NCBI RefSeq assembly: GCF_921293095.1
Contig: NC_060252.1
Location: 1,984,001-2,048,000, forward strand
From: Ischnura elegans
Taxonomy: Eukaryota; Arthropoda; Insecta; Odonata; Coenagrionidae
DNA: 64,000 nucleotides
Direction: 5' to 3'
The translations under genes were made by a program, and so were the position numbers. This document shows, piece after piece, positions 8,251 through 63,030 of the stretch. How positions within the stretch are numbered: the stretch's first letter is position 1; the number at the start of each line of letters is the position of its first letter. The notes under the pieces were generated by a model. That model did no database searches and was not told the origin of the DNA. It was given only the letters and a program-made list of their open reading frames with translations.

Positions 8251-10485
8251 CACAGTGGGCGAAATGCCCCAAAAGATGGTCAAAACTAAAAATCATTCCT
8301 ATATGGCCTAAAAGATGACGTTTTATATGTTTTTGAGGTTGCTGAGTGCGATTCTGAAGTCATAATTTAAAAAAATCATGGTGAAAGATGAATTATGATA
8401 TATAAATTAAAAGAAGTTCAGAATAAATAAGGCATAAACTATGAAATATAGGCAAAGTAAGAAGTTTTAAGTTTACAAAAATATGAGTGAATAATGGAAT
8501 AACATAGATGAATAAAGAATTTATCTGGCATTATTTTATAAATAACAATGAATGGGTAGTTAAATGCGTAGCAATTAAATTCATGACCCAAGCAAATGTT
8601 AATTATTGCAGTGATCTCAACTTTGTAAGCAGTTCCTCAAAAGCTCCTCAGTTCAGGTGGATCACTGCTTACAAAGTCGTCTGAAGAGTTGTCGGAATAT
8701 ACTTCGGGAGAGGTCGATGAGGATGGGCATGAAGCTTCAGACATTGTAACACTCGGTGGTATTATCAGAAGCAACGCCTCGCTGCTTAAGCATTGCAATT
8801 TCTTTTTCGGCAATGGCCTTGGGCTGTTTATTAAAGGATCTGAAAAAATCAACAGCCTGGAATAAACATCTTGCATATTTTTTCGGCGTGAACATATCCG
8901 TGCAAAAACTTCACGAAGCCTCTTAAAATATTTATTGCACGCCTCCTGGGCTTCTTCTGACATCCATCCAATGGGCAATATGGAATTTCTATTAAATAAT
9001 TCCTTTCAATGTACAAATAGTTTATGCACCGTTGTTGGCATGTTGAACCAGGGATATTAGCGCACGAATAAACGGGCAGTTTCAATTGCATACTCTTCAA
9101 ATATGTCGACATCTATTTGATGGCCGCAGGATATGACTTACAAAATGGTATGCATACGTTTAATCAAATTTAAGTCCAAGCCAGTAATGGACGCAGAAAC
9201 GCTGCTATTTTCAAAGGAACGACGAGCTGTGTTTCCGTCATTGCTACTCCCAAAACTTTGCTTTGGCCTCTAAACAATGAGGCCTAGGTGAGACCTGAAA
9301 AACTTTCTTTGTGCAGTCTGAAGGACAGATGTATGAAACATTCAAAGCATCGAAGCATACTAATACGTGCTAGTAGTATGGCATCCCCCGATCCGCCTCA
9401 CGGTTGGAAGCATTAAACACAATAGAAAGATACAACGTGTCGTTTGTACAGCGAAGGAATAAACATTGTAAATCACGGACGTGAGCCAATAACCAAGTTG
9501 AGAAAAGGGTGCATGGTGCACCCTCCACGTCCCTGCACACTATCAACCGACTCCTTCCCCGTAAACCAAACAGCCGATTCAACGCGCTGAAAACCAATTG
9601 GACTCTTCCCCCCAAACATCTCCAAACCAAGCCCACATTCCTCATGAAACATATCAAACTACAAATTGTACTTTTCACCGGAAGATTATCGGAATCGTCG
9701 AAATATATAGATCGAAAGTATTGGAATTACAAGTGAAATTTAAAACGTCTTTCAATGGCCCATTCAAAATTTGAATAGTTAATAACAAAACGTATAAACA
9801 ATTTTTGAAACTTGAAAATAAATACTCATAGTTCAATTTCATAACTAGACACATTCGCATAAAAATATTCATGTCTTCAACGGAAACATATGAGCGTGTA
9901 GAGTACCGACTATGGAACCCAACGCGTGGCCATGTGATTATCTTAATTAAATGGCTTAAACTTTGCGAGGGGCAGTTTGGGGCAGCAAATGTTTGTTTCG
10001 TAATAACAATTAAATGTGTAAGATTGATTATATGCTTGTTATTACGCAGAATACGATAGAATGCTAAACTTATGACTTAATTTTTAAATAATTTTTCGAA
10101 TAATATTGTATTAATTTTATTCAAAAAATAACTTTAATACTGCCAATTTATTAACCTATAGCAATTTTTAAGAAATTTATTTAGATTACACACACATTGC
10201 TTGGCTAAATACATTTTACAGAACGAAATTCGCCCAATTACAACAGCAGTAGCGTTATAATGAACTACAAGTACTTATTCTTGCGCTGGTCAGTGGCCGC
10301 TCTTACTCACGCGGACATCACTTTCACAGTGGTTTATCAACGCGTAAACATACTCACCAGCCTTTAAAATAGTATTTTCGGACGCTCCCATTCTTCCTTT
10401 AGCCAATACATAATTTCAAAAACCTTATATACTAAGTTCATATTTTCCTATTTTGGCCACGTTTTTGGGCATTTCGCTCACTGTG
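8251..10485. mobile_element. Transib element A (RAG1-related superfamily), 2,235 bp
   Basis: The left end reads CACAGTGGGCGAAATGCCCC. The right end, read inward on the minus strand, is CACAGTGAGCGAAATGCCCA. CGCCC flanks both sides (8246-8250 and 10486-10490), giving a 5-bp GC-rich duplication as known for Transib. Without the insert and one duplication, the flanks rebuild the Harbinger terminal repeat, which confirms the boundaries. A decayed transposase lies on the minus strand at 8637-9280. The rest, roughly 9400-10460, is AT-rich with no domain I recognise. Confidence 0.92.
8637..9280 (-). pseudogene. Transib transposase C-terminal half, decayed
   Basis: From right to left on the minus strand: QSFGSSNDGNTARRSFEN (about 9230), TGLDLNLIKRMHTIL, YPWFNMPTTVHKL (about 9050), then ILPIGWMSEEAQEACNKYF with FKRLREVFARICSRR and a serine-rich tail ending at 8637. 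The order matches the C-terminal part of Transib transposases. The SEEAQEA-NK block aligns with ASEGNESGNK of RAG1, where the third catalytic acid lies. At least three in-frame stops break the reading (one near 9125 and two between 9000 and 9060). The N-terminal half with the first catalytic aspartate is not visible, so this copy cannot make a working enzyme. Assignment is by eye against families known to me. Confidence 0.87.
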
Positions 10486-10506
10486 CGCCCCAGCGAAACC
10501 AGACCT

Positions 10507-12800
10507 TTACAGTGAAGTTTTCCTTTGGATCACGCCATTTGGTCCTCTGCTGCAGGTGGTGAAGGTACTCTCGTGACCAGCGTTTCCAAAAGTTCAGCTG
10601 CAGCCGTTGAAGAAGACGCCATCTGGATAAGCAATTACCTGAAATATTGGGACACTCAGGTTCTGGAATTAGAAACAAAGTATCACCAATTAAAAAGTGG
10701 GCTGGGGTCAGAGCATTTAGGTCATCTGGATCAGAGGACATTGGATGGAGAGGTCGGGAGTTGAGACAGGCCGCAATTTGAATAAGAACTGTTGAGAACT
10801 CTTCAAACGTGAGGGTATGTTCACCAACTACTCTGAGAAGGTGATGTTTCGTTGACTTTACCCCAGCCTCCCATAGACCACCAAAATGTGGAAAATTCGG
10901 TGGTATGAAAGACCAACTTGTTCCATCATCGGCCAGGACTGAAGCAACTTCGGCGTAGAAATCCGAAGCTGCGCCGAACATCCTCCGCAGTTCCTTGGCG
11001 GCCCCTTGGAAAGTGGTCGCATTGTCGCTGTATAGCGTGCGGCAAACACCTCGACGTCCAGCAAAGCGTCGATAGGCAGCCAGGAACGAGTGAGTTGTGA
11101 GGTCACTGACGGCTTCCAGATGAATTGCTCGTGTAGCAAAACACACGAACAGTGCTACATAGCCCTTGTATGAGCGATGTCCTCTGCCTTTGGTAGTGCG
11201 CAGGTAAAATGGGCCTGCGTAGTCGAGTCCAGCTACACTGAAGGGGCGCGCTGGTGTCGTCCGCGTTGCAGGAAGGTCGCTCATCAGCTGATAGCCGAAG
11301 CGTGGTTTTGCACGATGACATTTCACACACTGCCGCGTGAGTTTTTTAACAAGTGCCACGTCCCCCAGTATCCAAGTCTGGCTCCGTAAAATATTGAGTG
11401 TAAGGGTAGGTCCGCCGTGAAGCGAGGAAAGGTGAGCAAATTGGACTAAAAGTTGGCTTAAATGGGATCTTTTAGGAAGGATGGATGGGTGTTTAGCAGA
11501 AAATGAAAGAGTGGAATTTTTTAGACGACCCCCTACACGAAGAATACCGTTTTCGTCCAGAAAAGGCTTTAGGCCCCGTAGCGGATTACGCCTGGGCAGA
11601 GGCTTGCCCGCTCGTAGTAATTTCAATTTCTCAGAAAAGGCAAACGATTGTGCTAGCTGGAGCACCTTGCAACGAGCGGCAGCGAGCTCGCTAGTTGAGA
11701 GAAAGTTGGTATTAGGAATTCGTGATCGTTGACAGCGCGCAATGAATCTTAGGCAGTAGGCCATTACTCTAATCGGTCTGGTTATCGAAGAGAACCGTTT
11801 CAATATTGCATTCTCTTCTGCAGCTTGAACGACGAATAGTTGAGGAACAATAACAGGTTCAGGTTGTCTTGGCCAATTTTCCAGGGTAGATAGCAGCCAT
11901 TCTGGTCCTCGCCACCATATAGATGAATTTATAAGAGCATCAGGGTCTAAGCCTCGACTTGGGAGGTCAGCTGGATTCTGCTCTGAAGATACGTACTGCC
12001 ACACAGCAGAAGGCAGCTCAGTTTGTATAAATGACACCATATTTGCAATGAAGGTTTTCCAATAACTTTGATGCTTTCTCAGCCAGGCGAGAGTTACCTG
12101 GCTGTCCGACCACGCAAAGACTGGTAGCGACGAGAATGCTTTTATTTTCTGCAAATGATTGACCAAACGAACAAGAAGTGCGGCTCCGCAAAGCTCCAAC
12201 TTTGGTATTGTTATAGTTTTAACTGGGGTAACCTTGGATTTTGCGGCGAGAAGAAATACTCGACATTGATTTGCGTCGTCAAGTACACGCAGATAAATTG
12301 CTGCAGCGTATGCTCTCTCCGATGCGTCTGCAAAGCCGTGAAGCTCGCATCTTGAGGTCGGCGTCGTTTGCAGCCAACGATCAATTCGCAGCTTCGAAAG
12401 TCTAGGAATTGCATTGAAGTAGCTAGTCCATCGAACCTTAATATCCGTAGGTAATGGTGTATCCCAACCTATCTTTAAAATCCACATATCTTGCATGAGT
12501 ATTTTTGCGACGACAGTGACTGGAGCGACCCAGCCTAGTGGGTCAAAGAGACGCGTCATCTTGGAGAGCACCGTCCTTTTAGTGAGAGCCATAGTGTGGA
12601 TTTCTGTTACTCGCAGGTTAAATCCAAACAGGTCAGCTGTTGGCTCCCATATAAGGCCAAGAGTTATTACAGGCTCCTTTGAGTCAATAGATGTTTCCTG
12701 CTCACATTCACGACGCTGTGAGGCACGTCGTTGCAGAAGAGCTGGATGGTTGACAGCCCATTTGTCGAGTTCTATTCCTGCACAGGCCAGCAGTTTCACT
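10507..12800 (-). pseudogene. BEL pol: RNase H and integrase
   Basis: The long open frame (its minus-strand 5' part above about 12800 is out of register with the true frame) encodes the end of the RT (CAGIELDKWAVNHP, then MTRLFDPLGWVAPV), an RNase H with GFADASERAYAAAIY and FAWSDSQVTLAWL, and a BEL integrase. The integrase has a zinc-binding HLSSLHGG ... CVKCHRAK module and catalytic acids in GLDYAGP, SDNATTF and GGLWEAGVKS. The open frame stops at 10478 only because the Harbinger insertion begins at 10506; its last residues come from that insert. The DUF5641 tail is at 6021-6202. Product would be processed by the element protease in the virus-like particle. Confidence 0.93.
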
Positions 12801-14336: not shown

Positions 14337-15483
14337 TCAAGCCTCATCTCTTCGTTCAACAGGAGTCTTTTCTAGGAAACCGGAGCAGACGGCTATATAG
14401 TGGTCTATTGAGCATATAGGACAATTACGGGTGCTTGTGGAAGATAGTCGCTTAGTCTCAACGTGAAAAGACTTCGCCCCAGACGAGGAAAATTTGGGCG
14501 TCGTGTTACTTCCTTTGTCCCAACTCGTAAGAGGAGCTATCATCTCTAAGGCACGGATACGACCCTCGAGAAACTCTACGAGCTCCCTGAAACTGGGAAA
14601 TAAGTTTGGATTCGCTTCACTATTTGGTGTGAGATTACTCAACCGGTCCTTGGTGGTCAGGTGCGACTCCCATGACTTTCGCGATTCTTTATCCAAACGC
14701 TGAGCCGTGATAAAGACAAGCCAGTCGTCCCATGTTGCCACTGGACGACCCAGGTTCTCTAGCGCTCGAACCACCTGAATCGTTCGGTCAACTAACGTCC
14801 GCAATTCCGATGCTGACTCCTTCATCATCTTTGGCAAATTCATTAGAGTAGACAGATGAGTGTGCAAGCACAGTCGTGGATTATTGTACCTGGCTTTCAG
14901 GGCCTCCCAGGTCGGTTTGTAGTTGGCGTCCGTAACAGAGATGTTTTTTTACAAACTCCGCTGCAGAATCCTTTAGGCACATCTTTAAATATTGCAACTT
15001 TGTAGCAGGAGAAAATCGATGTTCTCCGTCCACTATTGCTGTAAATAGATCGCAGAACGATTCCCAATCCGCAAATGTACCCGAAAAGCTCGGCAACGTT
15101 GTTCTCGGAAGCTGAATGGGAAGTTGGAAATTAGCGTGATCGGCCTGATCAGCTCCTCCTCGTCCAGATGAGGTCGTAGGTACATCAGGTAACTGGGCGA
15201 GCATGGCTTTTAGTTCAGCGCACGTATCATAATAAATCTCCTCCGTCTTCTCATATTGTCCATCCACTAAATAACGCTCCTTCGACACGTCTTCCCGCGT
15301 CACCAGCTCAAAGTACGTGGAAGTGTAATCGTTCCAATACTGCTTAAGTGAGTCGATTCTACTCTGAATGGCTTCCTTAGTGATATTTGCAGCGCCCTTC
15401 TTCTTTAAATTCGGCACTAACCTAGTAATTGCACGATCCCGTTGTTCCTGCTGCGCAATCAGTTGCTTCGTCGTCATAGACAT
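14337..15483 (-). pseudogene. BEL gag (DUF1759-like), frameshifted
   Basis: The first part (14881-15483, 200 residues from MSMTTKQLIAQQEQ) holds a coiled N-terminal region and the Pao gag core FSGTFADWESFCDLF and FSPATKLQYLKMCL. A run of seven A on the coding strand near 14945 shifts the frame. The downstream part (14337-14867) continues the same protein with ELRTLVDRTIQVVRALE and WDDWLVFITAQRLD. It ends at an in-frame TGA (14337-14339) directly before the zinc knuckles. The role is the structural protein of the retrotransposon particle. The start at 15483 is the first ATG after the leader. Confidence 0.9.
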
Positions 15484-16012
15484 AATGTTTACTAGGATCC
15501 TAACGGGTAGCCGGTATTGAAGTAATGCTCAGAACGAAGACGTGGGAAAATAAACTCTTAATGTACTTTGCGCCTCAAAAAGTGCGCAAAACAGACGAGT
15601 AACAGCCCCGTAAGAAACTTCGCTAACCAGGGCGAGCAGCGCACAGCTGATTTCGCGAGAGGAGGGAGGATAGGGAGTCAGTGGGAGAAGAGAGGGGAGA
15701 GACAGACAGCGAGGTGAGGGGAAGTACAGCACGCTCATTCGCGGGGGAAGAGGAGTAGGGGCTTTTGCGAGAGGAGGGAGGATAGGGAGCCAGTGGGAGG
15801 GGTGAGGTACACAGTCCACCATCCAAAAATTTGGGTATGGGTTAACTCACTGCGGCGTGACGGAGCGACGGCACAAAGTTCACAGGCACCTCCCCGGTCG
15901 AATGGCCGAGTAATGTTCACTGTAATTCACAATTGTTCCTCTGCAATTGTAGCCCCATGCAGTACTTATCACACATTCGCGAATAAACAGGTATCCGGCC
16001 CGAAGGACCATT
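15484..16012 (-). promoter_or_regulatory. BEL leader with tRNA primer binding site and internal duplication
   Basis: On the plus strand 15992-16010 reads TATCCGGCCCGAAGGACCA, which looks like the last 19 bases of a mature tRNA including CCA. Its complement would therefore serve as the primer binding site, two bases inside the 5' LTR. The tRNA identity is not assigned. The leader also holds a partial direct duplication: GAGAGGAGGGAGGATAGGGA occurs near 15657 and again near 15769. A second, GC-rich and purine-rich strand bias runs through 15650-15810. Confidence 0.75.
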
Positions 16013-16233: not shown

Positions 16234-16478
16234 ACCAGTTTTTATTAAAGACTTCCTAAAAGCATGTAATAATTATGTCCCTTTTGGAACTTTGTCATTG
16301 GTAACGAATTATTTGAATGTAATTGTATTCGAATTCATGTTGGATTTTAAACCTTGTAATTATAAGCCATTTATAAATCGCAAAACCTTCCTTAATTATC
16401 ATAATAGGCAAAAAACAGTACATGGACGTAATTATTTAGCCATTTAATCATTACGAAAACATTTTCCTGCGAGTTATC

Positions 16479-16790: not shown

Positions 16791-16799
16791 AGCATTGAG

Positions 16800-42900: not shown

Positions 42901-42969
42901 TTCTCTATTCTCATACCTGGAAGAATTTTTGTCTGTGAAAAGTTTTGAACTTACCCCTTTATTTTTCAA
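39925..42969 (-). CDS. LINE family 1 ORF2: endonuclease and reverse transcriptase
   Basis: The 1,014-residue open frame has an APE-type endonuclease at residues about 95-315 (VVNCRSLRNK, GTESWLTDD with E129, GGDFNVPSIDW with D236 and N238, GISDHRVV with D307 and H308). The reverse transcriptase covers about 560-850 (NYRPISLTSISCKVLEHIV, IFLDFKKAFDKVPH, SGVPQGSVIGPLLFLLY, and the catalytic FADD at 764-767). A C-terminal region follows with YLGVRLNNDLSWNKHI and LVRPHLEYAASVWDP. These are the parts needed for target-primed reverse transcription. No internal stop is present, so the element may be competent. The start ATG lies 32 bp after the ORF1 stop. Confidence 0.95.
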   Translation of the reverse strand: MKNKGVSSKLFTDKNSSRYENREVERKISVSGITFKHEKRQSSNTFKGSQGSNHFDSVSIRHAFPFINGIEPVNSLFDKSKSELFPNRNITTSEVLIVAVVNCRSLRNKIPEFHHLIHSTKCNVIFGTESWLTDDDSDNEIFPKSFTVYRKDRINRVGGGVFIAVKNSIVSQAITVTETSVESVWCLIKCSKFKTILLCSYYRPPNSDITSMLDFQNQINSVASMYPERNLIVGGDFNVPSIDWETYSFIPGGRDKVICEALLHTFTSNSLFQIASAPNRGENILDLLATNIPHQVINVGTVEGISDHRVVTAKFSLNTAVNFKKERKVFIFKRANFDGFKSHMKNAFPEFQESVLKLNVENTWKAFLSLVTSGINSYIPSKIVKEGSKPRWYDAEVRKSLRRQRACHAKMKKVSTDLYANERELIIKKYRMTKAATKEAFRNAFTNFKRKTLVEQLQDNPKAFWSYVREVQGKRSTVCSLRNDNGDVLTSSYDKANLLNSYFKSVFTEPSENSPETDDNPCIHNIPAIDISTLGIENILKSLSPNKSPGPDEIPSRVYKELASELAPYLQLIFSKSIKQHEVPNDWKIANVTPIFKSGDKEQPSNYRPISLTSISCKVLEHIVVSSVMKHLDEQNLLMGNQHGFRKSRSCETQLALFAHDILVSGEDNIPVDAIFLDFKKAFDKVPHGKLVIKLKSYGLDEDVISWIREFLSDRVQRVVLDGAVSNEVRVTSGVPQGSVIGPLLFLLYINDIGEVVQSKLRLFADDAVVYREIRSSKDIDELTNELAAIQAWCDAWQLELNLEKCVVMNFWKKNNSLQRNYVIRGTQLKAVESVKYLGVRLNNDLSWNKHIREITGQANRKMGFVKRILGKCDDKVREISYFSLVRPHLEYAASVWDPHEKGLITELERVQRRAARYVKGRYDSLVSVTDLLDKLGWESLSDRRLKNRLNLLDKFKSSVFSDEVNHILRTPTYYGRSDHINKVREIDCRTDRFRMSFFPRSIRDYNGSNRTRK

Positions 42970-43001
42970 CCCACTAATATATCTACACTCTGCCCTACTC
43001 T

Positions 43002-44027
43002 CTACTCTAAAAAAGACCTACAGTGCTCAAATATGCTACTCGCTACACGACTAGCCGACTCGGCCGTGTAATGGACTCCCGAACGGTTCAGAGGGATCCG
43101 ACACGATCGGATTGCCGGCCTAAGGTCCACGAAGGAGGCTCCGATGTCCGTGCAGAAACGACGCAGCCTCTGGTTTATGCCTTCCACTCGGCTCCAAACC
43201 AGAGAACCACGATCGATCTTCGGGACAAGACTACAAATCGAAAGCTCAATGCCGACTCCAATGGTCCCACCCACCCGCTTCACTTCGGAATTCAGATCCC
43301 GGAGGGAATCTAGAATTTCCTCAGATCCACGGAAGGTGGCATCATTGACGCCGACATGAGCCACGACCCGCAGTCTGGAGCACTTCGTGCCCCGTACCGC
43401 CGCACCAACCGCCTGCGTCACCTGAGGAACACCGCCACCAGGGATGCACCATGACGTTACACGGTCGCTTACACCTTCGCGGTCTGCCCTCTCCCGTAAC
43501 GGGACCATCACACGACGGACATTGCTACTCCCTAACACTATGATCCCCCCCTTCCCACTCTGACGCCCCTTCCTAGGTGCCGGTTTCGGGGTAGGAGTAG
43601 GCACGTAAGGCACCTCGGAGTTTCCATCCGACAGCAACTGGTACCTGTTCGAGACGGGGACGAGATTTGCCTCAGCATCCCCCAAACCCCGTCTTAGAGT
43701 GACACTACCACCGTCCCTCCGAGACACGACCCTCCAAAACTCAGATTTACGGGGTGACGTGACCCCGTCATCGAGAGATGGACCTCGAGGAAGGCTCTCG
43801 ATCGACCAGCCGCTATTTGCAATCGGGCGAACCCGTGCAGCCCCTGTGGCACGGCGACCTTTCGAAGAACCACCCCTCGGACCATTCCCCTCAGCGGTAT
43901 CAGCCACCCTTTCAAACTGGGCCCGAAGTTCCCGCACCATCGTCTCCAACGCGGTAATGCGGTCTCCGAGAGCCTCGCATTCACCGGCGTTTTCAACTCC
44001 GGCAACGGGTGACCTATTCGAAGGCAT
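43002..44027 (-). CDS. LINE family 1 ORF1 with SGNH/GDSL-esterase-like domain
   Basis: The 341-residue protein has an N-terminal coiled-coil-like stretch (residues about 15-45, EALGDRITALETMVRELRAQ), a low-complexity linker and a domain from about 160 to the end. In the latter IIVLGSSNVRR (166-169) matches SGNH block I. HVGVNDA (G226, N228, D229) matches block III. SGVHYT (H319) matches the catalytic histidine block, although the usual aspartate three residues earlier is not there. CR1 and L2 ORF1 proteins are known to carry such esterase domains. The role is probably RNA or membrane association during retrotransposition. The ATG at 44027 is the first in frame. Confidence 0.88.
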   Translation of the reverse strand: MPSNRSPVAGVENAGECEALGDRITALETMVRELRAQFERVADTAEGNGPRGGSSKGRRATGAARVRPIANSGWSIESLPRGPSLDDGVTSPRKSEFWRVVSRRDGGSVTLRRGLGDAEANLVPVSNRYQLLSDGNSEVPYVPTPTPKPAPRKGRQSGKGGIIVLGSSNVRRVMVPLRERADREGVSDRVTSWCIPGGGVPQVTQAVGAAVRGTKCSRLRVVAHVGVNDATFRGSEEILDSLRDLNSEVKRVGGTIGVGIELSICSLVPKIDRGSLVWSRVEGINQRLRRFCTDIGASFVDLRPAIRSCRIPLNRSGVHYTAESASRVASSIFEHCRSFLE

Positions 44028-46495: not shown

Positions 46496-47337
46496 AAAAG
46501 TGCAGTTGGAAATACCAGATTCTGAAGAAATTCATCGGACTTTTGGGTTCATAAGGAACATTGCATATTTCGGGAACTTTTACCGAACAAGTTTGATAAA
46601 TACATTTCGATAAATACTACCACTATGACACATGTCGCACATGGGGCCAAATGCTTAAAAGATGGTCATAATTATTAAATTTCATGTAATCTGTTTGAAA
46701 TTTGGAATATAAGTTTTCGAGGTCGCTTATTCCGAATATCATATTGAAATATACAGAAAAATTATATTTTTCCAAAAAAACTGTAATTTTTCCTAAAGTA
46801 AAGCAGTAATTGTTAATTATGTCCAGTAAAATGGGAGGAATATTTTTCATGATATTACATTATGAATTTGAAACTGGTTTTTAAAATTATTCTTCTCTGA
46901 AATACATATGCGAAGCTTTAAGGCACTCGATTAATAATTTTATGATTTATTTTAAATAAATAGCATCATTTTATGTCAATTTTTTAATTTTCAAATATTC
47001 TAAACGAATTAATTTCCGATACTGTTACATGTATCTAAACGCACACGTTATACGCATGTAGGTACCTATGGCTTAAAAATATATGCTGGAACATAATATG
47101 GTAGCCAAGAAATCTCAATAAAACATTACTGTATACCAGTCAATCTGCGAAGAATATGAACAGGCCCGCGACCACTCACGTAGACAAACGCAAACACTAG
47201 TTGTAATCCGTCTCTGATTCTTCCCTTGAATTATCTAAGCATCTACATCTACATAATACCCCGCAAGCCGCCTAAAAGGCGTGTGGCAGGGGGTGTTAGG
47301 ACACCAGCCGTTTACAGCTATTAAAAAAAAAAGTGCT

Positions 47338-50335
47338 CTAACGAGGTTGGGACAAGCGTTTATTAAAGTCCTTTATTGTTCGGGGGAAAAACGAATTCCC
47401 ATATCTATCCGTTCGGCAAAAAATCTCTCTTAATTTATCGCTTCTGTCGGACCTGGAAATATAGTGTGGCTCTAAGATTATGTTCTCTGTGTCGCTCTTA
47501 AAGATATCCATTCTTAATTGTTCAAGCAATCTAAGCCTAGCGCGCAGCCTCCGAGTCTCCAACGGCTCCCAGCCTAATTCGCTTAACATCTGGGTAACAC
47601 TGTCTGTACGCCCGTAACGGTTTTTGACGAAACGCGCAGCCTTCCTTTGTATCTTATTCAGTTCGCGGATTAAATCTTTCTGCACTGGATCCCATACACT
47701 CGCTGCATATTCAAGGTGCGGTCGGACGAGAGCGAAATAGCACCTTTCTTTTACTTTCTCATCCGAAAATCTTCCCACAATACGATTGACGAATCCTAAT
47801 TTCTTCAGGGCTATGCCGCAAATATTCTTTATATGTGTTCCCCACGTGAGGTTCGAGGTTATCGTAACTCCCAGGTACTTCACTTCGTCTGCTGCCTTTA
47901 TGTTAATGCCATCCACTGCATAAACATTGTTAGTGTAGGACGAATTCCGCAAAAAATGTACCGCCATGCATTTGCTCAGATTAAGTTCGAGTCCCCACTC
48001 TTGACTCCACAAATGAACGTTGTTTAAGTCCGATGATTGATTTCCATAGTCAGAGTGAACACTAATTTTGCGATAGATGACAGCGTCATCAGCAAATAAA
48101 CGTATTTTACTGCTAATGCGGGAGCAGAGATCGTTAATGTATATAATGAACAACAGGGGGCCGATTACGCTTCCTTGTGGAACACCTGATGTAACTTTTA
48201 CAACATCAGAGCAAATTCCGTTAAGAACTACTTTTTGTTTACGATCTCTGATAAAGTCGCGTATCCAGTTTATAACTGTTTCGTTTAATCCGCATGACTG
48301 TAATTTGTCTAAAGGTTTGTTGTGAGGTACAGTGTCGCAAGCTTTCTTAAAATCTCGAAATAGTGCGTCAACTTGTCTTTTCGATTCACCAGATTTTATA
48401 ACGTCGTGAAGAAAGAGCGCGAGCTGTGTTTCGCGGGATCTATTTTTTCGGAATCCGTGCTGACAGTCATGGAGGAAGTTACGTCTGTCCAAGAAAGTCA
48501 TGATATTACTAACAACGATATGTTCAATTATCTTGCCTATAATTGATGTTAGTGAAATTGGACGGTAGTTGCCTGGGTCATTTCTGTTTCCCTTTTTGAC
48601 AATGGGTGTAACGCTTGCAATTTTTCAGTCAGGCGGTAACTTCCCTTCGGAGAGTGACTTCTTGAATATGATCTCTAAGTAAGGCGCTATCTGTGGGGCT
48701 AACTCTTTGAGGACACACGCGGGTATTCCCTCCGGACCCGGAGATTTACTATTCTTAATCGATTGTAGTTGTTTAGTTATCCCATCACGTTTTATAGGTA
48801 TTTCTTCCATCAAATCCTCAGTATATGGGATGTCTAAATTGAATTGAGTATCGTCAGTAGAGTATACACTTTCGAAGTGGGCATTTAAAGTGTTAGCTTT
48901 GTCAATATTTTCGTTGACAAGTTTACCATCTTTATCAAATAACGAATCTACGGTTGAATGTTTTCCCTGGAGCTCTCTCGCGTACGACCAAAAGGATTTC
49001 GGATTTTCTTCGAGTAATTCACCAAGTACTTTTTTCTTAAACTTTCGCATTGCAGTTCGCATTGATTTCTTGGTTATTGAGCGTTGAGAAGCGTAACTTT
49101 CTTTAGCTTCAAGTTCCTTCGATTTATTACGAGACGTGATGGACTTTCTGTGCAAGTTGTATAGTTTTCTCTGTTTCCTAAGTTCTCTTCTGACATCGTT
49201 GTTGTACCAGCGAGGTTCCTTATTATCACATTTCAGTTTTTGCGGAATATGTTCGTTGATTCCTTGGCGCAGAATTTCTAAGAAACGTGTCCATATTACA
49301 TCTGTGCTTTGGTCCTTAGATGTAACAACGAATTTTTTGTAGGAGTCATTAAGCATCTCGCCAAATTTAGTGAAGTTACATTTACCGAATAGGTAAATAT
49401 TGCGTTTTGGTTTTACGGCTGACACCACATCAACTTTTAACGTTGCAAAGATTACTCTGTGGTCGCTTATACCGTCAATAATATCGACTTGTTTTATCAA
49501 CTTAGGATCGCTTACTGCTAAAAGGTCTAATAGCTTGTTTCCTCTCGTAGGTTTGTCAACTACTTGGGCTCGAGATTGATTTGCAGGTACGTTGAGTAAG
49601 ATCTCGCTGATTTCTCTGTTCCTTGAATTCGTTTTTACGGTTTAAGTATCCCAGTTTATGGATGGAAGATTAAAATCTCCCCCGATTACTATTACACCTT
49701 TACTGTCTCTCTGAGTAAATGCGGATATTTGATTTTCTAGAAGGTACATAATATCGACTTCGGAGTTCGGCGGTCTATAAAAAGAGCAAACATGAATACT
49801 CCTTTTGTTTCGTTGTTTAATTGTACACCATACGATTTCAATTTCGTTGTCAATTATTTCGTGGGCGGCGCTTTGTAAATTGGATTTAACTGCAATAAAA
49901 ACTCCGCCACCTGTTCTATTGCGTCGATCGCATCTGTAAATTTTATATTCTGGAGGAAAAACTTCGCTGTCGCTTCTATCTTCCGTAAGCCAGCTCTCTG
50001 TCCCTATGACCACGTCTGCGTCCTGAAAAATATGCTCGATTTCGGCGCGCTTGTTTTTTACGCTACGGCAATTAACTACAACAAGGTTAATGTCATATTT
50101 TGTAGTTAGAGTTTCGGTTGGTTCTTTTCTAGGCTTTTGTATACTCAGCGGGAGAATTTTATTGGCAGTACTAATAATATTTGATATTTTTTCTCTCTCT
50201 GGAGCACGCGTTTTGGGAATAATGACGCTATTGTCCGGCGTTAACGCTTCTAAGCTTACTTTCTTGTATATTTCGCATTGCGGATTTCCTCGGAGGCTAC
50301 GTTCAATTAAATCATTGATAACCCCGCTAGATGAC
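47338..50335 (-). pseudogene. LINE family 2 ORF2 with two in-frame stops
   Basis: The endonuclease begins near 50100 (LVVVNCRSVKNKRAEIE), with IGTESWLTED and IGGDFNLPSINWDT. A TAA at 49642-49644 follows. The frame resumes with GISDHRVIFATLK and the RT start. A TGA at 48625-48627 replaces a codon after GKLPPD. The frame again resumes to NYRPISLTSIIGKIIEHI, VDALFRDFKKACDTVPH (substitutions in the usual FLDFKKAFD), SGVPQGSVIGPLLFIIY and the FADD box, ending at 47338. All parts share one frame, so the damage is limited to point changes. Confidence 0.9.
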
Positions 50336-50342
50336 CTACCCT

Positions 50343-51371
50343 CTAGTCTAAAAAATACCTACAGTGCTCAAAAATCCTACGAGCCACCCGTTCCGACGCC
50401 TCTTTGGAGTAATGCACCCCAGACGAATTGAGGGGAGCCCGGCACGATCTAAGCACCGGCCGAAGACCCACGAACTCTGCCCCAATGCTCACACAGAGTT
50501 CCCACAGCCTCTTGTTGATCCAGGAAATCCTGTCCCAAACTCGAGGGCCGCAGTCCGTCCGTGGAACAATGCTACAGATGGACAGTCGCATATCAACACC
50601 AGTGCCCCTCCGAACGCGTTCCACTTCCGAGCTTAGATCCCTGAAGGAATTTAAGATCTCATCAGCTCTGCGCTCGGAGGCATCATTAGTGCCGACATGG
50701 GCCACCACCCGCAGTCTAGAACAGCCCGTGTCCTTCACCGCTGCTTTTACCGCCGCCGTAGTGTGGGATACAAGACCTCCTGGGATACACCAGGAAGAGA
50801 CCCGTTGGTCCGCTCCGTCTCTCCTTGCCCTCTTCTCCAACTGGGGGAAAATCCGCCGGACGTTGGAACTCCCTAACAGAACAATCCCCGCCCTCCCTCC
50901 CCGGCTGCCTCTCGAAGCTGCATCCCTCGCGACAGGGGGTTCCTTCACGACCTCGCCAATTAGCTCCCCGGAATTGTCCTCCGACAAGACGTCGAAGCTG
51001 TTGTGAACGGGGATGGGGTTAGCCTTCGCTTCCCCCACTCCCCGACTTGGCCGTGCCACCGCCCCCCGCCCTTGGGGTACAACCACCCACTCGGGCCTCA
51101 GGTTATGCGTAATCCCCCGACCCGAAGACTTCACCGTCCTCTCCAAGGTCTCCGCGCAGGCTACCGCCCCCGAGCTTGCTCGAGACTCCACCTTGGAATT
51201 GCGCGGGCCCGTAGAGGGGACGCTACGATCCCCGGACCGTGGGATTTCCACAAAACCCGTTACCCGGGCGTGCATTTCTGCCACCAATTTCTCGAGTTCG
51301 GTGACGCGTGCCTCAAGAAGGTCGCTTTTCGCCTTACTCTTGATCTTGGTGACGGAAGATCGGCCAGCCAT
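50343..51371 (-). CDS. LINE family 2 ORF1 with SGNH-esterase-like domain
   Basis: The 342-residue open frame mirrors the family 1 ORF1. It has an N-terminal coiled stretch (LLEARVTELEKLVAEMHARV), a variable linker, then GIVLLGSSNVRRIFPQL, VVAHVGTNDAS and NSSGVHYSKEAS near the C terminus. These are SGNH blocks I, III and V. It is intact although ORF2 is not. It ends just before ORF2 begins. Confidence 0.87.
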   Translation of the reverse strand: MAGRSSVTKIKSKAKSDLLEARVTELEKLVAEMHARVTGFVEIPRSGDRSVPSTGPRNSKVESRASSGAVACAETLERTVKSSGRGITHNLRPEWVVVPQGRGAVARPSRGVGEAKANPIPVHNSFDVLSEDNSGELIGEVVKEPPVARDAASRGSRGGRAGIVLLGSSNVRRIFPQLEKRARRDGADQRVSSWCIPGGLVSHTTAAVKAAVKDTGCSRLRVVAHVGTNDASERRADEILNSFRDLSSEVERVRRGTGVDMRLSICSIVPRTDCGPRVWDRISWINKRLWELCVSIGAEFVGLRPVLRSCRAPLNSSGVHYSKEASERVARRIFEHCRYFLD

Positions 51372-52260
51372 ACTACTCTAGCGGCTTTATCGGCTTAATA
51401 AAAACGCTATGAAATTACAGAAATCGATAATAATGATACAAATATTGCGTAAGAGGAAGTTAGTTTTCTAAACGAGTTAGATAAGACAGGTTATAATGAT
51501 GAAGAACAAGGGTGAATAATAGAGCTCGCACACAAATGAAGGTTCAAGTAACTTTTAGGAATTAACACTAATACCTTAAATCTATCAATAAGTTCTAAAA
51601 GTATTACAACTAGGCAATCTTTACAAACAATTAAGGCAAATTGAAATAAGGAAGAGAGAAGAGAAATTAAAAGCAAGTAAGTTGGTCAGCGACTACTTAT
51701 CCGTTTCCCCTAACGTGGCAGGCACAGCAGCAGCTACAGGACCAGGCGGCTTCACAACACTACTTCACTATTACACTTTTACTACTCTTACTACTTCGCA
51801 AACAATGATTAGCAGAAGTACACACTAAAATCACTACACTAAGAAAAACGGAAGCAACGGCGTTGAAGCCCAAGGTGATCGCTGTCGGTCAGTGAAGAAC
51901 CGGTTTCAGGAGCGCACGGAAAACACAACCTCACTCTACGAGAGCTGGTCAGAGAATGAATGAATGAAAGACTACATTATATGAATGAACCCACTTATTT
52001 TTTAAAATCTTATATGAAAACTGAAAAATTAACTTAAAACTTGACTTAAAAAACTTTACATGAAAATATAAGAAGCTAACAAACACCTTTACATAACACA
52101 TTATTATAGTAGGTTTTCTACGTTGAATATGAAAAGAGCCGCGCACACAGACTTAGATACGTTAATATTAATTTCAATCAAACTCCGTTCCATCCAAAGA
52201 ATCCTATTCCGATGAAGATACTGATTATGTCAAGTAGGATACATACAAAATATTCATGGC

Positions 52261-52931
52261 CTAGGAACATAAAACTCTCGATGGCTTGGATCGCATCGCA
52301 GTCTGGCTTACAATAATCGAGTCGGAATGTAACATCATTCTCACGAACAAGGCAGCTACAGTTTTTTTCCTCGAGCACTTTCGGATAAAATCTTCCCTGA
52401 ATTTCCTCAGCAATTTGTTATACGCTTCCTGTGCTTCCTCTGATATTTGTCCGATTGGTAACAATGAATTTTGTACGACATCCCTTTCGTGCAACAGTAT
52501 CTAGGGTAATCATTGTTGGCATACAGTACCAGGGATATAATTCAACAATAGCCGTACTGTCAATAAGATGGAATACTCTTCGCAGATATCTATATATATC
52601 CTATAGCCAGATGACAGAACTTGTAAAATAGTACGAAATGTCTGAAGAAGCTCCAAATTGAGGCCTGTTTTTATTGGCGGAAATTTCAGAGTTCTCGAGC
52701 TGTGTTGCCGTCATCACTACTACCATACACCTGCTTTGGCCAGTCATCTATGAAATTAAGCTCCCTATTAAGTCCTTCCCGTATCCTCTTCTTAGGCTTC
52801 TCCACCAATTCTTTAGATTTAGTATCGCAAATCTGCCAGGTTTTAACTTCCATTCTAAAAGCCACTTGCAAGCAGCATTCGAAAATTCGAATCCATGCAT
52901 TCAGCGTGCTTAAACCACGCTTAAACCACAC
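52261..52931 (-). pseudogene. Transib transposase C-terminal half in element B, decayed
   Basis: From right to left on the minus strand: LNAWIRIFECCLQVAFRMEVKTWQ split by one linker, then PKQVYGSSDDGNTARE (52690-52730). YPWYCMPTM lies near 52530, and LLPIGQISEEAQEAYNKLL with RKFREDFIRKCSRKK at 52380-52470. The blocks and order agree with element A, with the DGNTAR and SEEAQEA motifs shared. The parts are in different frames, so the gene is dead. The N-terminal half is not visible. Confidence 0.85.
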
Positions 52932-53595
52932 TTCAAAGGTATAGTAAAAAACATATCATTGACATTGATGCATCAATTCTACTTTTTAAATTTAAAATTG
53001 ATCCATTTGGATAGCTGTAGAGCAGTGTTGAAGATCGGAATATTTCGCAGCGAGTGGGAGTCTATGCATCACAGTAGCGCACCTCTCACTTTGCCAGTGA
53101 TACGAACTTACTTAACTGCTATTCATATTAATTTCTCAACAGCTCAAATAAGTGTCTTCCCAACCATGATATGAAAGGTCAAAATCCCGAACTTTTATTT
53201 TTCTAATTATGACCACCTTTTATAGATTTGGCACCACTGTGCGTCGCACAGTGGGCGGAAATCGGAAATAGCCGGACAAAATTACAAAATGGCTTTTTTT
53301 GAGTTATTAACTTGAAACTTTGCAATTATACTCAAAAAGGATTGAAATTTATGGATATGTACTTCATTTGACAAAGATCTGACCCGTTACTGAGATACAG
53401 AGGCTCAAACGTGAACAAATTTCCATAAAAACGCCCGTCTTCAATTTTCTCTGAAAATCTTCCAAAGTAAGTAGATGGTGAAGTTAAAGGTGGATTCTTG
53501 CGGAATAAAAAACCACATAATCTGTTGGCATAGGTTTTTTCTTTAATTTTCCGTAATCTTAAAGAATATCATCGATAAATTGTTACCGTGCAGTT

Positions 53596-54335
53596 ACAAA
53601 ATGGCTGACGGTAGCGTTTTGAACTCTGAAGATTACCACCAAAAGATACTGGATATTCTACGGGACCAGGCATACAGGAAAATTAACCGCGATCCCACAG
53701 ACTCCGTTACCCGGAAAACGATCGCATTGATCAAGAGTTGCGGCCTCCCCACGGACACCGCCAAGAATCTGCATCCTCCAGCACCCGCACCTCCAAGGCT
53801 TTACGACCTGCCAAAGATCCACAAGGATGACGCGCCTCTGAGGCCAATCGTGAGCGCCATTGGATCACCCACCTATAACCTGGAGAAATTTCTCACGAAC
53901 ATCTTATCACCGCATGTAGGCAACTGTGATCACCACATCAAGAATTCATCAGAGTTCGTGAAGACCCTTGCAGATTTTCAACTTGGTGAAGACGACATAA
54001 TGATAAGTCTTGACGTAGTGTCTCTGTTTACCCGAGTGCCTCTACGGGATACGCTGCGTCTGCTGGAGTCCAAGTTTGAAAGTGACATGATGAAACTTTT
54101 TCATCACGCATTAACGACTACATATTTCAAGTACGACGGAGAATTCTACGAGCAAGCCGATGGAGTCGCCATGGGATCACCACTCTCCCCGCTAATTGCA
54201 AACTTCTTCATGGAGGACTTTGAGGAAAAGGCTCTCGCACCGCCCCCCTGCGGCCCACATGTTTTTTCCGGTACGTTGATGATACCTTCATCGTTTGGCC
54301 ACACGGACCGGAGACGCTCAACCAATTTTTAGATC
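53596..54335 (+). pseudogene. Penelope-like reverse transcriptase, frameshifted
   Basis: Blocks include LYDLPKIHKDDAPLRPIVS, then DIMISLDVVSLFTRVPL and GVAMGSPLSPLIANFFMEDF. After a T6 run near 54265 the likeness moves to another frame, where RYVDDTFIVW (54271-54300) carries the catalytic YVDD. The open frame of 250 residues therefore ends in out-of-frame sequence. The frame then runs into the inserted element at 54339. Family RTs are usually longer at the N terminus, so the start here is a truncation point. Confidence 0.88.
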
Positions 54336-54338
54336 ATA

Positions 54339-56333
54339 AGGCCGCTGTACACGGTGAAAGATCATTCGAAAGATCTTTCGAAAGATCATTCGAATGATCA
54401 TTCGCAAGAAATTCATTCGCCGGTACCGCTATACACGGTGAAAGATTTCGGTGAATGATTTCGGTGAAAGTTCTGCGCAGAAACGATGCGCACTGGTGCG
54501 ACTATCGATAGTGTATTTCGATTCTAACGATATTTCCGACCGTTTCTCACCACATGATTTGTTTAGGAGCTCGCAGACGATGGAACGCTTTGTTTACATG
54601 TGCGATTCAATATACTTTGGTATTGCTTTGACTTTCGGTGGGGTATGACGCACTAAGTAATGAGAGGAATTAGAACGATACGTTTTGACAGCGGAAAACC
54701 ACTTTAATAAATCGTGCGTTTTGTACTCCCGTAACGAAGTACATAATTGGTTGTTTTCGCTGCAGAGCAAAGATGATTATGCTTCAAGATAGTGTGCTCT
54801 GTAACAAGATCATAAGGGAACTTACTCTTCAAATGGCTGCCCGAGGTCTTTTCCCTCCCGATTCATTAAATTATAAAGTTAGTGAAAATATAATTTGGGG
54901 AAAAACTGCACATTGTTACTCGTTCAGAAAAATCCTATCTCAGTCCCGTATTGACGCCGCAGCGTCCAGCTCCCATAAAAAAAGAACATAATAAGCATAC
55001 AGCAAAAGCTCCTCAAGGTTGAAGGCCGGTCGACCATGAGTTTTTATGTTTGAGGTTCCTTCGTGTACACAGCCTTTACAATGTAGTCGAACAAAGGTCA
55101 TTCCTGTGCGAGAAAAGAAAGGTAACGTGAAGAGAAAAAAGGAAGCGACCTGTTCTATTTTCGAAAGAGTGCGCTTCAGCATCCTCATACTTTCTACAAT
55201 GAAGTTGGCTCAGTGCTTGCTATCGAAGCAGGGGAAGAAAGTGGACTGTGATATTCATGGGCTAACTTATAGGGTTTTCCCCTTGAATTATAGGCAACCC
55301 CGTGAGATTGTGACTCCCTAGGTGGGCCAATGTGATGTCACGGCTCGTTTTGGCTGGAATGTGTTCACCGAATAAACAGATATTTTGTCATTAATTGGCA
55401 GTCTCACCCCAAACTTTAGCGTTCCAATCATTGAATACAGTTTGATAATTGTAAATCAAACAAAATATAGACGCAATCGAGGAGAAAAACTACGATTTTG
55501 AACTTTAAAAATCCGGAATGTTTTTTCCAAATTACTCAATTTTGAGGAATGATGTTTGTGAATTTACTTTCTTTCAAAGTAAATATTTATGATTTAAGCT
55601 ATCGCATGAGTTAATATGCTTCCAAAGTTTATATATATTATCTTAAAATTCCGAGGTGGTGCTAATGGCAAGATGGACGCCATGCGCTCATATCATTCAC
55701 GGAATCATTCAAGCAAATTAGGACATGCTCGAAATTTCTTTCGGGTGAGTTCCTTGAATGATTAGAGATAGGCAATATTGTGATCCCATAGGTGAGCCAA
55801 GATAACGTAGCGGCTCGTGTTGGCTGGAATGTGTTCACCGAATAAACAGATATTGTGTGATTAATTGGGACTCTGACCCGAAACTTTAGCGCTCAAATAA
55901 TGAACTATAGTTTAATAATTGTAAATTAAACAACATAAAGACGCAATCGAGGAGAAAAACGACGTTTTTATTCATTAACTATCCGAAATATTATTTCCAA
56001 ATTACTGACTTTAGACAGTTGATGTTTGTGAATTTATGTTCTCTCAAAGTACATATTAATTATTTGAGCTATTTCATGGGTTACTATGCTTCCGAAGTTT
56101 TAATATAAAATATTAAAATTCCGAGGTGGATGCCAATGGCAAGATGGACGCCGTGCGCTCATATCGTTCACGGAAATCATTCAAGCAAATTAGAACAGGC
56201 CTGAAAGTTCATTCGAATGATCATTCACGCTGGAAATTTCCAGGAAATTTCCGTTGTACACGGTGAATGATGGATCATTCGAATGATCTTTCGAAAGATC
56301 TTTCGAATGATCTTTCACCGTGTAAAGCGGCCT
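54339..56333. mobile_element. 1,995-bp terminal-inverted-repeat element inserted in the Penelope-like ORF
   Basis: The ends are AGGCCGCTGTACACGGTGAA and its inverted partner (ending TTTACAGTGT-less GCGGCCT at 56333, read inward AGGCCGCTTTACACGGTGAA). They continue as GATCATTCGAAAGATC in both. ATA flanks both sides (54336-54338 and 56334-56336). The subterminal zone is made of GATCATTCGAAAGATCTTTC palindromes, which fold on themselves. No transposase is recognised; a 72-residue frame at 54773-54991 is of unknown nature. The superfamily is undecided; a 3-bp duplication fits PIF/Harbinger, but a TA target is also possible. Confidence 0.88.
55321..56205. repeat. Tandem duplication of about 465 bp inside the TIR element
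   Basis: AGGTG(G/A)GCCAA, then GGCTCGTNTTGGCTGGAAT, TTCACCGAATAAACAGATAT, GACGCAATCGAGGAGAAAAA and GATGTTTGTGAATTTA occur in the same order from 55320 and again from 55789. The two units have diverged by many substitutions, so the duplication is older than the insertion or was present in its parent element. Confidence 0.85.
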
Positions 56334-56336
56334 ATA

Positions 56337-57226
56337 CGAATAGCCAGCACCCCAATATAGAGTTCACCGTGGAGACGGAAAAAGACAACAGGATACCCTT
56401 CCTTGACATACTCATCTATCGGAAGGGAAATGGAAGATTAGGACATAGCGTCTATCGAAAGCCGACCCACACCGACCTCTATCTTAACGGTCGAAGTCAT
56501 CATCATCCTTCCCAAAAGGCAGCAGTCATGTCCACCCTGATCCATCGGGCCAAATCAATTTGTGACTCAGAGAGTCTCCCCGAGGAGTTACTTCATCTGA
56601 AGAAGACTTTACGGCAGAATGGCCACAACGGAAGAGACATTTCCAAGGCCCTGAAAAGGGCCTTCACCAACCACAAAACCGCCACCAAAGAAGAAGGAGA
56701 AAAACCATTAGCGTTTGCGGGCCTACCTTTCGTCTCGACCGTCTCATGCAAAATAGCTAGAATACTCAAGAGGCATGATATTAAAGCCTATTTTCGCCCA
56801 CCTGCAAAACTTAGAAACCAACTAGTGACGGCCAAGGATCCCTGCGGCCTCATGACACCAGGGGTCTACCAGATTCCATGCGAATGCGGCCAGGTGTATG
56901 TCGGTGAGACAGGAAGGACTATCGCCACCAGGATGAAGGAACACCAGCGGCATTTCAGGCTCGGCCAACCCGAAAAATCCGCCGTGGCTGAGCACAGCAT
57001 ATCACGTGACCATGCCATTCGCTGGGAGAACACGAAGGTTCTGTGCCGTGTGGACAGATTCTGGGAAAGGCTGACTAAGGAAGCTGTTTTGATTCGGACG
57101 ACGTCTAACACCATGAACCGTGATGCTGGTTACGCCCTAAGCAATTCCTGGAAACCGGTGCTTAAATATGTCAGCGAAGCCCGGGAAAAAAGACGGGAAA
57201 AGGCGGACCAATCACGAGTCACCTGA
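56337..57226 (+). pseudogene. Penelope-like thumb and GIY-YIG endonuclease
   Basis: The open frame (56267-57226) has about 24 leading residues from the inserted element; genuine sequence starts near NSQHPNIEFTVETEKDN. KDNRIPFLDILIYRK and GHSVYRKPTHTDLYLNGRS form the RT thumb. GVYQIPCECGQVYVGETGRT (residues 199-218) is the GIY...YIG core, followed by KEHQRH and AEHSISRDHAI. This nuclease nicks DNA for integration. The domain is uninterrupted to its stop at 57226, but it is cut off from the RT. Confidence 0.9.
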
Positions 57227-57397
57227 CCTGGAGCCCATACTATATAAGTGGGATCACTCAAACGGAAAGACAAGCCCTGATGACGATGGACGACTCGGCC
57301 ATCGAAACGTCGGCAGAGATGGAGAACCTTATCCGGTGGCAATCCCGAATAAACTTCACCAACATCATACGCCGGGAAAACCTCAGATCTTTCTTCA
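57227..57397 (+). promoter_or_regulatory. Penelope-like 3' UTR with hammerhead-like motif
   Basis: CTGATGA (57277-57283) and GAAAC (57304-57308) flank GATGG...CCATC, which pair. A single C lies between CTGATGA and the stem, which is not the textbook hammerhead core. Penelope-like elements are known to carry hammerhead ribozymes in their terminal repeats. The same motif occurs at 5558-5589. Confidence 0.6.
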
Positions 57398-57405
57398 ACA
57401 ACTAC

Positions 57406-58220
57406 GGCCCTTTCTCGTGATAAGAGAGTTCTTTCAAAGTATAGGACGAGTGAAAAGGTCCACACTGAGGTGACAGTGGAAGAGGCACTGTCATTGATGA
57501 TTGCCTCTGAGTTGACCAAGAGTCAATATCGGTCTTTCCATAGGACAGCTCTGAACCATGGACACGAATTGTATCCCAGCTATGACAGAATAGCGCTAGC
57601 AAAAAAGGCAGTTATAACGAAGGAATTAAAATAACTGAGACCATGTGCGAAGTAAACCTTCAAGCACTACTAAACCACACTATAATGGGAATAATAGCCT
57701 GCTTAGCTACAACTTCCACCACTCAAGAATTAAAATGTGTGGTGAAATGCATATTAGTCTCTAAGTACGGTTTTGATGGAAGTTCGGGCCACTCTCAATA
57801 TAAGGAAATGTTGCAACAAGTGGATGCTTCAGGCGAATTCCTAGTCTTGAGTTCCCTTGTACCTCTTAGTTTGATTAACGGCGCTATAGGTAACGGCTGA
57901 AGTTTTATTTCAACTTTCTCTTGGTTAATCACATTTATCTATAAACTTTTGATAAAGAATTTAACTTGCCCCGGAGGCACTTCTCACATCTAGGCGCTAC
58001 AATTTTAGGTGACACCAACTGGAAAAATCCATGGCCGTCGTCGACCCATCCGCTTTAAGTGAAAAAAAGGGACAAAAGAAGTTACAAAATCAGAAAGATA
58101 TTATATTGAAAGGCAGGTTGTTAACCTTCATAATTTCAACTCTGGAATTTACACGATCAAGTTCTGTTTACTACTGACAATGATCAACGGAAAGTCAATT
58201 ATTATATTGCTTACTTTTTT
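57406..58220 (+). pseudogene. Transib transposase N-terminal and central part in element D
   Basis: The plus strand reads SRDKRVLSKYRTSEKVHTEV, EEALSLMIASELTKSQYRSF and HGHELYPSYDRIALAKKAV. After a shift near 57635 it continues as EVNLQALLNHT and KYGFDGSSGHSQYKEM, then LVLSSLVPLSLINGAIG. DGSSGHS is the block with the first catalytic aspartate in Transib. A possible intron (GTAACG at about 57888 to TTTTAG at about 58011) leads in frame to DTNWKNPWPSSTHP. A later TMINGKS block lies near 58185. Shifts and stops show decay. It complements the C-terminal halves seen in A and B. Confidence 0.82.
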
Positions 58221-58259
58221 TCCTAATTTTTTATTAATCTTAATGCCAATATAATTTAT

Positions 58260-60240: not shown

Positions 60241-60242
60241 AA

Positions 60243-60405
60243 ATGTACGAAAAAATGTACGAATAAATGTACCGTGTAACCACCTACTCGTGGATCTTGT
60301 TTAATCTAAAGCTACAAGAATCTGTTCAGAAAACCATTCAGAAAAATGTACAGAATCTTGTACATTCTAATGTACCGCGTAACCAGGCCTTTAGACATCT
60401 TGGCG
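60243..60405. repeat. Terminal fragment of a possible TIR element (GGCCTGGTTACGCGGTAC)
   Basis: GTACCGTGTAACCAC (about 60270) and GTACCGCGTAACCAGGCC (about 60375) are direct relatives. Between and before them ATGTAC(G/A)-type words and TGTACAGAATCTTGTACA form local palindromes. Read from the right, the end is similar in design to the 54339-56333 element (GGCC, then TACACGGT, then self-complementary units). Confidence 0.45.
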
Positions 60406-62675: not shown

Positions 62676-62679
62676 CACG

Positions 62680-63030
62680 CACAGTGGGCGAAAATCGGAA
62701 AAAGCCGGACAAAATTACAAAATGGCTTGTTTTGAGTTATAAACTTGAAACTTTGCTAATATACTCAAAAATGATTGACATTTATGGATATGCATTTCAT
62801 TTTACATAGATCCCACCCGTTACTGAGATACAGATGCTCAAACGTGAGCAAATTTCCATAAAAACGCCCGTCTCCAATTTTCACTGAAAATCTTCCAAAG
62901 TAAGTAGATGGTGAAGTTAAAGGTGGATTCTTGCGGAATAAAAAACCACATAATCTGTTGGCATGGTGTTTTTTCTTAGATTTTCCGTGATCTTAAAGAA
63001 TATCATCGATAAATCCTTAACGTGTAGTTA
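62680..63030 (+). mobile_element. Transib element E, left end
   Basis: CACAGTGGGCGAAAATCGG starts at 62680. The following about 345 bp match the left arm of element D, including GCCGGACAAAATTACAAAAT and GTGGATTCTTGCGGAATAAA, with about 90 percent likeness by eye. Likeness is lost near 63030. The right end is not seen in the window, so the element may run on beyond 64000 or be broken. Confidence 0.8.

What the first reader, a model, noticed from the sequence alone, without database searches (positions are those of the whole stretch)
8251..63030. Five Transib (RAG1-related) elements or ends in one 64-kb window, most with a perfect RSS heptamer
Elements start or end at 8251/10485, 31521/32838, 46638/53241, 53247 and 62680. 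Six of the eight termini read CACAGTG exactly; the two exceptions are the left end of B and the right end of C. CACAGTG is the V(D)J recombination signal heptamer. Three have 5-bp GC-rich duplications. The transposase blocks place them in Transib, the family proposed as kin of RAG1. Such a density in one locus is unusual.
Basis: partly seen in the sequence, partly recalled or inferred. Interest (0 to 1): 0.85.

Follow-up and report, generated by a model that had tools for sequence, protein, structure and literature searches.

The report
Five dead Transib jumping-gene copies
The window holds five decayed copies of Transib, the jumping-gene family related to the enzyme that shuffles our antibody genes; this genome has thousands of Transib ends, so the find is real but ordinary for this genome.

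Summary
In detail: five Transib elements or fragments, 6 of 8 termini reading CACAGTG. Only A has an exact target duplication (CGCCC); B and C match at 4 of 5 bases. Coding blocks of A, C and D hit HzTransib (1.8e-11, 2.3e-8, 1.3e-7); B and E are tied to Transib by DNA relatives in the same genome. No copy encodes a complete catalytic triad. The 1.72-Gb genome holds 5778 exact CGNCG-CACAGTGG ends against 115 for the reversed control. Two 3,264-bp copies are 98.8% identical, each with an open 691-aa frame, TIRs and TSDs. The window is denser than average but not exceptional: a C1 stretch has 6 strict ends in 57 kb, the window 2. C and D abut as heptamer-CGTCG-heptamer; nine other such joins exist. 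TIRs carry A-rich, nonamer-like blocks about 10 and 22 bp from the heptamer, but the canonical nonamer is hardly enriched (8 against 4). New members of a known superfamily.

The parts
8251..10485 (-). Element A: non-autonomous Transib, 2,235 bp, TIRs CACAGTGGGCGAAATGCCCC / CACAGTGAGCGAAATGCCC, TSD CGCCC
8246..8250 (.). Left target site duplication of A (CGCCC)
   Evidence: sequence
10486..10490 (.). Right target site duplication of A (CGCCC)
   Evidence: sequence
8703..9308 (-). Transposase C-terminal third in A, one frame with in-frame stops; residue aligned with catalytic E436 of HzTransib kept; no match covering the two catalytic D residues
31521..32838 (.). Element B: 1,318-bp Transib derivative without a transposase match, left heptamer CACAGTG, right CGCAGTG, flanks TGGCG/TGACG
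   Evidence: both ends match the end of the L025 Transib; no match to L057/L058 transposase
46638..53241 (-). Element C: decayed Transib, left heptamer CACATGG, right CACAGTG, flanks TGTCG/CGTCG, interrupted by a LINE
47242..51971 (-). Non-LTR retrotransposon nested in C (named by eye and by resemblance to the RVT_1 element at 39925-43017); C is colinear with relative L057 across the gap (L057 1169 and 1173)
52177..52934 (-). Transposase remnant of C (residue aligned with catalytic E kept, no match covering the two D residues), in more than one frame and with stops
53235..53253 (.). Back-to-back join CACTGTG-CGTCG-CACAGTG between C and D
53247..53604 (+). Element D, left end (CACAGTG TIR)
53605..57396 (+). 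Retroelement splitting D, called Penelope-like by eye (RVT_1 in the 53547-54332 frame is the only family hit); replaces about 1.4 kb present in the D relative L059
57397..58194 (+). Element D, transposase N-terminal/middle remnant: first catalytic D present, second position reads N, stops; right end of D not found
62680..63399 (+). Element E: left-end fragment of the D family (92% to D over 300 nt; 89.5% to L059 over 724 columns); no right end found in the window

Best explanation
Five relics of Transib cut-and-paste DNA transposons from at least four families (A; B; C; D and E), in an arthropod-like genome with thousands of Transib ends. Working model: a Transib transposase binds the TIR, cuts at the heptamer CACAGTG leaving a hairpin on the flank and a blunt element end, and inserts into a GC-rich 5-bp site (CGNCG preferred), which is duplicated. 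This chemistry is reported for HzTransib (PMC6941560, passages) and was not tested here. None of the five copies encodes a whole transposase; they were mobilised in trans or decayed after insertion, and a LINE (in C) and a Penelope-like element (in D) landed in two of them. D lies one 5-bp target copy away from C, most simply because one element inserted into the other's duplicated target site. Shown: ends, TSD of A, homology of the coding blocks, open-frame relatives. Inferred: family count, insertion order, trans-mobilisation.
For: Coding blocks hit HzTransib 6pqn. Relatives L057 (706-codon open frame, nearest to C) and L058 (691) hit 6pqn at 6.7e-110 and 2e-106; chain residues 109/208/419, which with an offset of 17 equal D126/D225/E436 of PMC6941560, align with D290/D401/E611 of L058. 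L058 scores 27.8 bits on Pfam RAG1 (cut-off 25). A family, 20 copies picked from the best matches: by motif 17 left ends were recognised, all CACAGTG, and 15 right ends, 13 CACAGTG; 10 of 12 copies with one end of each kind have a perfect 5-bp TSD. Genome: CGNCGCACAGTGG 5778 against 115 reversed. B and E tied by DNA homology. D's left end: 1829 candidates, 40 scored including D itself, all covering positions 1-356 at 95% or more.
Against: B has no transposase match and its TSD is 4 of 5; its link to L025 is 67% over 460 columns and 87% over 55. C's TSD is also 4 of 5. D and E lack a right end. The N-terminal block of D is weak on its own (0.011). Pfam gave no Transib or RAG1 hit for ten window pieces, and L057 (22.0 bits) stays below the RAG1 cut-off.
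Confidence: 0.96

Rival explanations
1. The elements are RAG-like (RAGL) transposons carrying RAG1L and RAG2L genes rather than Transib.
For: RAG1 structures and a RAG1L are weaker hits of L058 and L057; L058 passes the Pfam RAG1 cut-off.
Against: HzTransib wins by about 100 orders of magnitude. No RAG2 family match in the genome, though that search rang in none of its 14 controls, so it is inconclusive. L058 shows only one frame of 180 codons or more.
Confidence: 0.02
2. The cluster reflects self-targeting: each insertion's CGNCG duplication attracts the next Transib.
For: C and D share one CGTCG; 10 places of the form CACTGTG-CGNCG-CACAGTG in the genome (control 1 place), all 10 read as Transib-like end against Transib-like end; about 2.3 expected if later insertions fall evenly over CGNCG sites.
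Against: The estimate takes CGNCG density from 219 kb, ignores regional clustering of insertions and counts only perfect ends; clustering could raise it. Only 10 joins among 5778 strict ends.
Confidence: 0.15
3. The CACAGTG hits are chance heptamers and the elements belong to another DDE superfamily.
For: 2 of 100 shuffles of the window reach 10 matches.
Against: Six of the ten coincide with ends supported by homologous copies, TSDs or Transib coding blocks.
Confidence: 0.01

Closest known systems
HzTransib (Helicoverpa zea; PDB 6pqn)
   Same: Transposase alignment over chain residues 9-461 of 497 with the three catalytic residues; element of 3,264 bp against 3,518 bp; 5-bp TSD (PMC1852546, passages)
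   Different: The open frames here, read from stop to stop, have about 190 residues ahead of the HzTransib match. The HzTransib heptamer was not read in any call.
Transib families of Kapitonov and Jurka 2005 (paper not held; known here via PMC8355894 and PMC6941560 passages)
   Same: Heptamer plus nonamer-like block at 20-22 bp
   Different: 12/23 asymmetric pairs are reported for a few families; they were not searched for here. The abundant pair listed is 22/22.
Vertebrate 12/23 RSS
   Same: Exact heptamer; ACAAAAATC (8 of 9 to the nonamer) 20-24 bp away at 329 places against 4 control, mostly at 22 bp
   Different: Canonical ACAAAAACC with 21-24 bp spacers: 8 against 4 control
RAGL/ProtoRAG transposons
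   Same: Related enzyme, 5-bp TSD, CAC start (PMC7204232 and PMC8289069, passages)
   Different: No RAG2-like match found (inconclusive); protostome RAGL TIR consensus in PMC7204232 is CACTWMCAAACKTYKBB

Membership tests
Transib | Transposase homologous to Transib over the catalytic core | tested here: met
   A, C, D pieces: 1.8e-11, 2.3e-8, 1.3e-7 to 6pqn; relatives at 2e-106 and 6.7e-110. B and E show no transposase match: tied by DNA only
Transib | DDE triad | tested here: met
   Complete in L058 and in the L057 alignment; incomplete in every window copy (A and C keep E, D keeps the first D; B and E none)
Transib | 5-bp GC-rich TSD | tested here: met
   A exact; A family 10 of 12; L058 CGGTG, L061 CGTCG. 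B and C 4 of 5; D and E not testable
Transib | TIR starting with an RSS-like heptamer | tested here: met
   6 of 8 in window; genome CGNCGCACAGTGG 5778 against 115 control, CGNCGCACAATGG 225 against 36 control; other heptamers not searched
RAGL transposon | RAG2-like partner gene | tested here: inconclusive
   PF03089: 0 matches in the genome, but none of the 14 control genomes rang either
12/23 RSS | Canonical nonamer ACAAAAACC at about 23 bp | tested here: not met
   8 matches with 21-24 bp spacers against 4 reversed control; 2 of 8 look like Transib TIRs by eye
12/23 RSS | Asymmetric 12/23 pairing of the two ends | tested here: inconclusive
   L040 is one 4,609-bp copy with two right-type ends and TSD CGCCG, which argues against a pairing rule in that family; the family has 22 bp at both ends. 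A 12-bp spacer was not searched genome-wide

The most novel reading that the evidence does not exclude
Each Transib TIR in this genome is a double signal: the exact RSS heptamer followed by two nonamer-like A-tracts, about 10 and 22 bp away, roughly one helical turn apart on the same end. Vertebrate 12RSS and 23RSS could then descend from one such end by losing one tract or the other, which would explain where the 12/23 asymmetry came from.
Probability: 0.08. Interest if true: 0.75.

Novelty: new member of a known kind. Interest (0 to 1): 0.35.

Why it matters
It points to a genome with thousands of Transib ends, in which CACAGTG is about 25 times commoner than CACAATG next to CGNCG, and with apparently recent autonomous copies (two at 98.8% identity). 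These are natural material for asking how TIR length and A-tract spacing relate to RSS recognition. The window itself is ordinary transposon debris.

Tried and rejected
Other superfamilies: no Pfam or PDB support. Canonical 23-type RSS: 8 against 4 control. RAG2: no match, inconclusive (first try, not answered). PF12940 over the genome was tried once and not answered. Signal-joint pattern CACTGTGCACAGTG not answered. Kapitonov and Jurka 2005 not held. Structure prediction and structure comparison were not run: the sequence match to a solved structure made them unneeded. Density as a special feature was rejected. The excess of joins (10 against about 2.3) is kept only as a weak rival.

Full report
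What was checked. The window is G000:C7:1984001-2048000 of a 1.72-Gb genome in 110 contigs. All eight claimed termini were read. Six read CACAGTG. A has an exact CGCCC duplication; B (TGGCG/TGACG) and C (TGTCG/CGTCG) have four of five bases in common. CACAGTG occurs ten times against a mean of 4.1 in shuffles; four of the ten are not ends.

Superfamily. Searched piece by piece against all PDB chains, the A block (8640-9005, minus) hits HzTransib 6pqn at 1.8e-11, the C block (52264-52500, minus) at 2.3e-8, and the D blocks (57586-57897 and 57353-57631, plus) at 1.3e-7 and 0.011; other hits in these four searches had E of 0.5 or worse. Pfam gave no Transib or RAG1 hit for ten window pieces. A search of the genome with A's block scored 150 of 1825 candidates, all with E of about 2e-8 or better (A itself and C among them), several in open frames of 670-714 codons. 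Two such frames were read: L058 (691 codons) and L057 (706) match 6pqn at 2e-106 and 6.7e-110. The RAG side is far weaker: for L058 RAG1 chains from 3.9e-6 and a RAG1L at 0.0015, for L057 RAG1L at 0.0061 and RAG1 at 0.025. L058 passes Pfam's RAG1 cut-off (27.8 against 25 bits) and L057 does not (22.0). The HzTransib chain residues 109, 208 and 419 plus 17 equal D126, D225 and E436 given in PMC6941560 (passages); they align with D290, D401 and E611 of L058.

Anatomy. A (8251-10485) keeps only the last third of the transposase, in one frame with stops. It belongs to a family of non-autonomous copies. I fetched 20, picked from the best matches, so this is not a random sample. Motifs that leave the first six bases of the heptamer free recognised an end in 18 of them: 17 left ends, all CACAGTG, and 15 right ends, 13 CACAGTG; 10 of 12 copies with one end of each kind have a perfect 5-bp duplication. 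Copy L032 is 99.9% identical to A over 1,446 bp and then differs. B shows no transposase match; both its ends match the end of the L025 Transib (67% over 460 columns, 87% over 55). C is colinear with L057 across a nested LINE at 47242-51971 (L057 564-1169, then 1173-2124). D's left end (53247-53604) and its transposase remnant (57397 onward) are colinear with L059, with a reverse-transcriptase element, Penelope-like by eye, between them and about 1.4 kb of Transib lost; its second catalytic position reads N. E (62680-63399) is a left-end fragment of the D family. No right end of D or E was found.

Genome context. CGNCGCACAGTGG occurs 5778 times against 115 for the pattern read backwards; CGNCGCACAATGG 225 against 36; other heptamers were not searched. 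The first 100 listed places, all on C1, show many plus/minus pairs a few kb apart with matching duplications (by eye). On average there is about 0.2 strict end per 64 kb; the window has two, both from the C-D join, so it is denser than average. The densest stretch in that list, C1:2442316-2498905, has six, so the window is not exceptional. Two copies of 3,264 bp with open 691-codon frames differ at 39 positions with no gaps (98.8%) and have different TSDs (CGGTG and CGTCG). That suggests recent activity; it was not dated.

The C-D join. C's right heptamer and D's left heptamer face away from each other across one CGTCG. The palindrome CACTGTG-CGNCG-CACAGTG occurs at 10 places (control 1 place); all 10 were read and show a Transib-like end on both sides, mostly of different families by eye. 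An even-target estimate gives about 2.3, but it ignores clustering, so the excess is only suggestive.

RSS likeness. In 31 ends (8 from the window, 18 from nine other joins chosen for a perfect heptamer, 5 from L025, L057 and L058), the match to ACAAAAACC peaks at spacer 22 (5.4 of 9) and spacer 10 (5.0), against a maximum of 3.9 in 2,000 shuffles. The ends are related to each other, so this is not an independent sample. CACAGTG-N20-24-ACAAAAATC occurs 329 times against 4 control, with a 22-bp spacer in 96 of the 100 listed, mostly one family with that block at both ends, usually 2.4-3.4 kb apart (counted by eye; a few of the 100 do not look like TIRs). The canonical nonamer is hardly enriched (8 against 4). 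PMC8355894 (passages) reports heptamer and nonamer-like sequences with 20-22 bp symmetric spacers for Transib. PMC8289069 (passages) says most Transib TIRs resemble the heptamer but hardly the nonamer. So the layout fits what is known. Copy L040 is a 4,609-bp element with two right-type ends and TSD CGCCG, its halves 99.4% identical; like ends evidently can pair in that family, on the evidence of one copy.

Conclusion. Transib membership is firm; the relics are ordinary for this genome. The species is unknown, so no paper on this genome was sought by name; literature searches were made, and of the six papers opened only matching passages were seen.

Noticed in passing
window 6206-10506: A DNA transposon with TIR AGGTCTGGTTTCGCTGG..., TTA on both sides and a HARBI1-like frame (7075-7446 minus, by eye; Pfam silent) sits in a BEL/Pao pol gene; Transib A is nested in its right TIR. 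DUF5641 of the BEL pol is split across it.
   Followed up: partly
window 5459-5642: 89-nt inverted repeat arms with a 6-nt gap, 99% complementary; the stretch 5552-5681 also matches 57271-57400 at 93%.
   Followed up: no
L040 1686-6294: Palindromic Transib copy ending in two right-type ends with TSD CGCCG and an internal left end.
   Followed up: partly
L052 (C1:95596102) and one search places: A Transib family with CACAGTG-22 bp-ACAAAAATC at both ends, usually 2.4-3.4 kb apart, making up most of the 329 matches by the look of the first 100.
   Followed up: partly
PMC8355894 and PMC7204232: The two papers disagree on N. geniculatus: a robber fly (Neomochtherus) in the first, a nemertean (Notospermus) in the second.
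   Followed up: no
window 15651-15807: Short purine-rich direct repeats of 45 nt.
   Followed up: no
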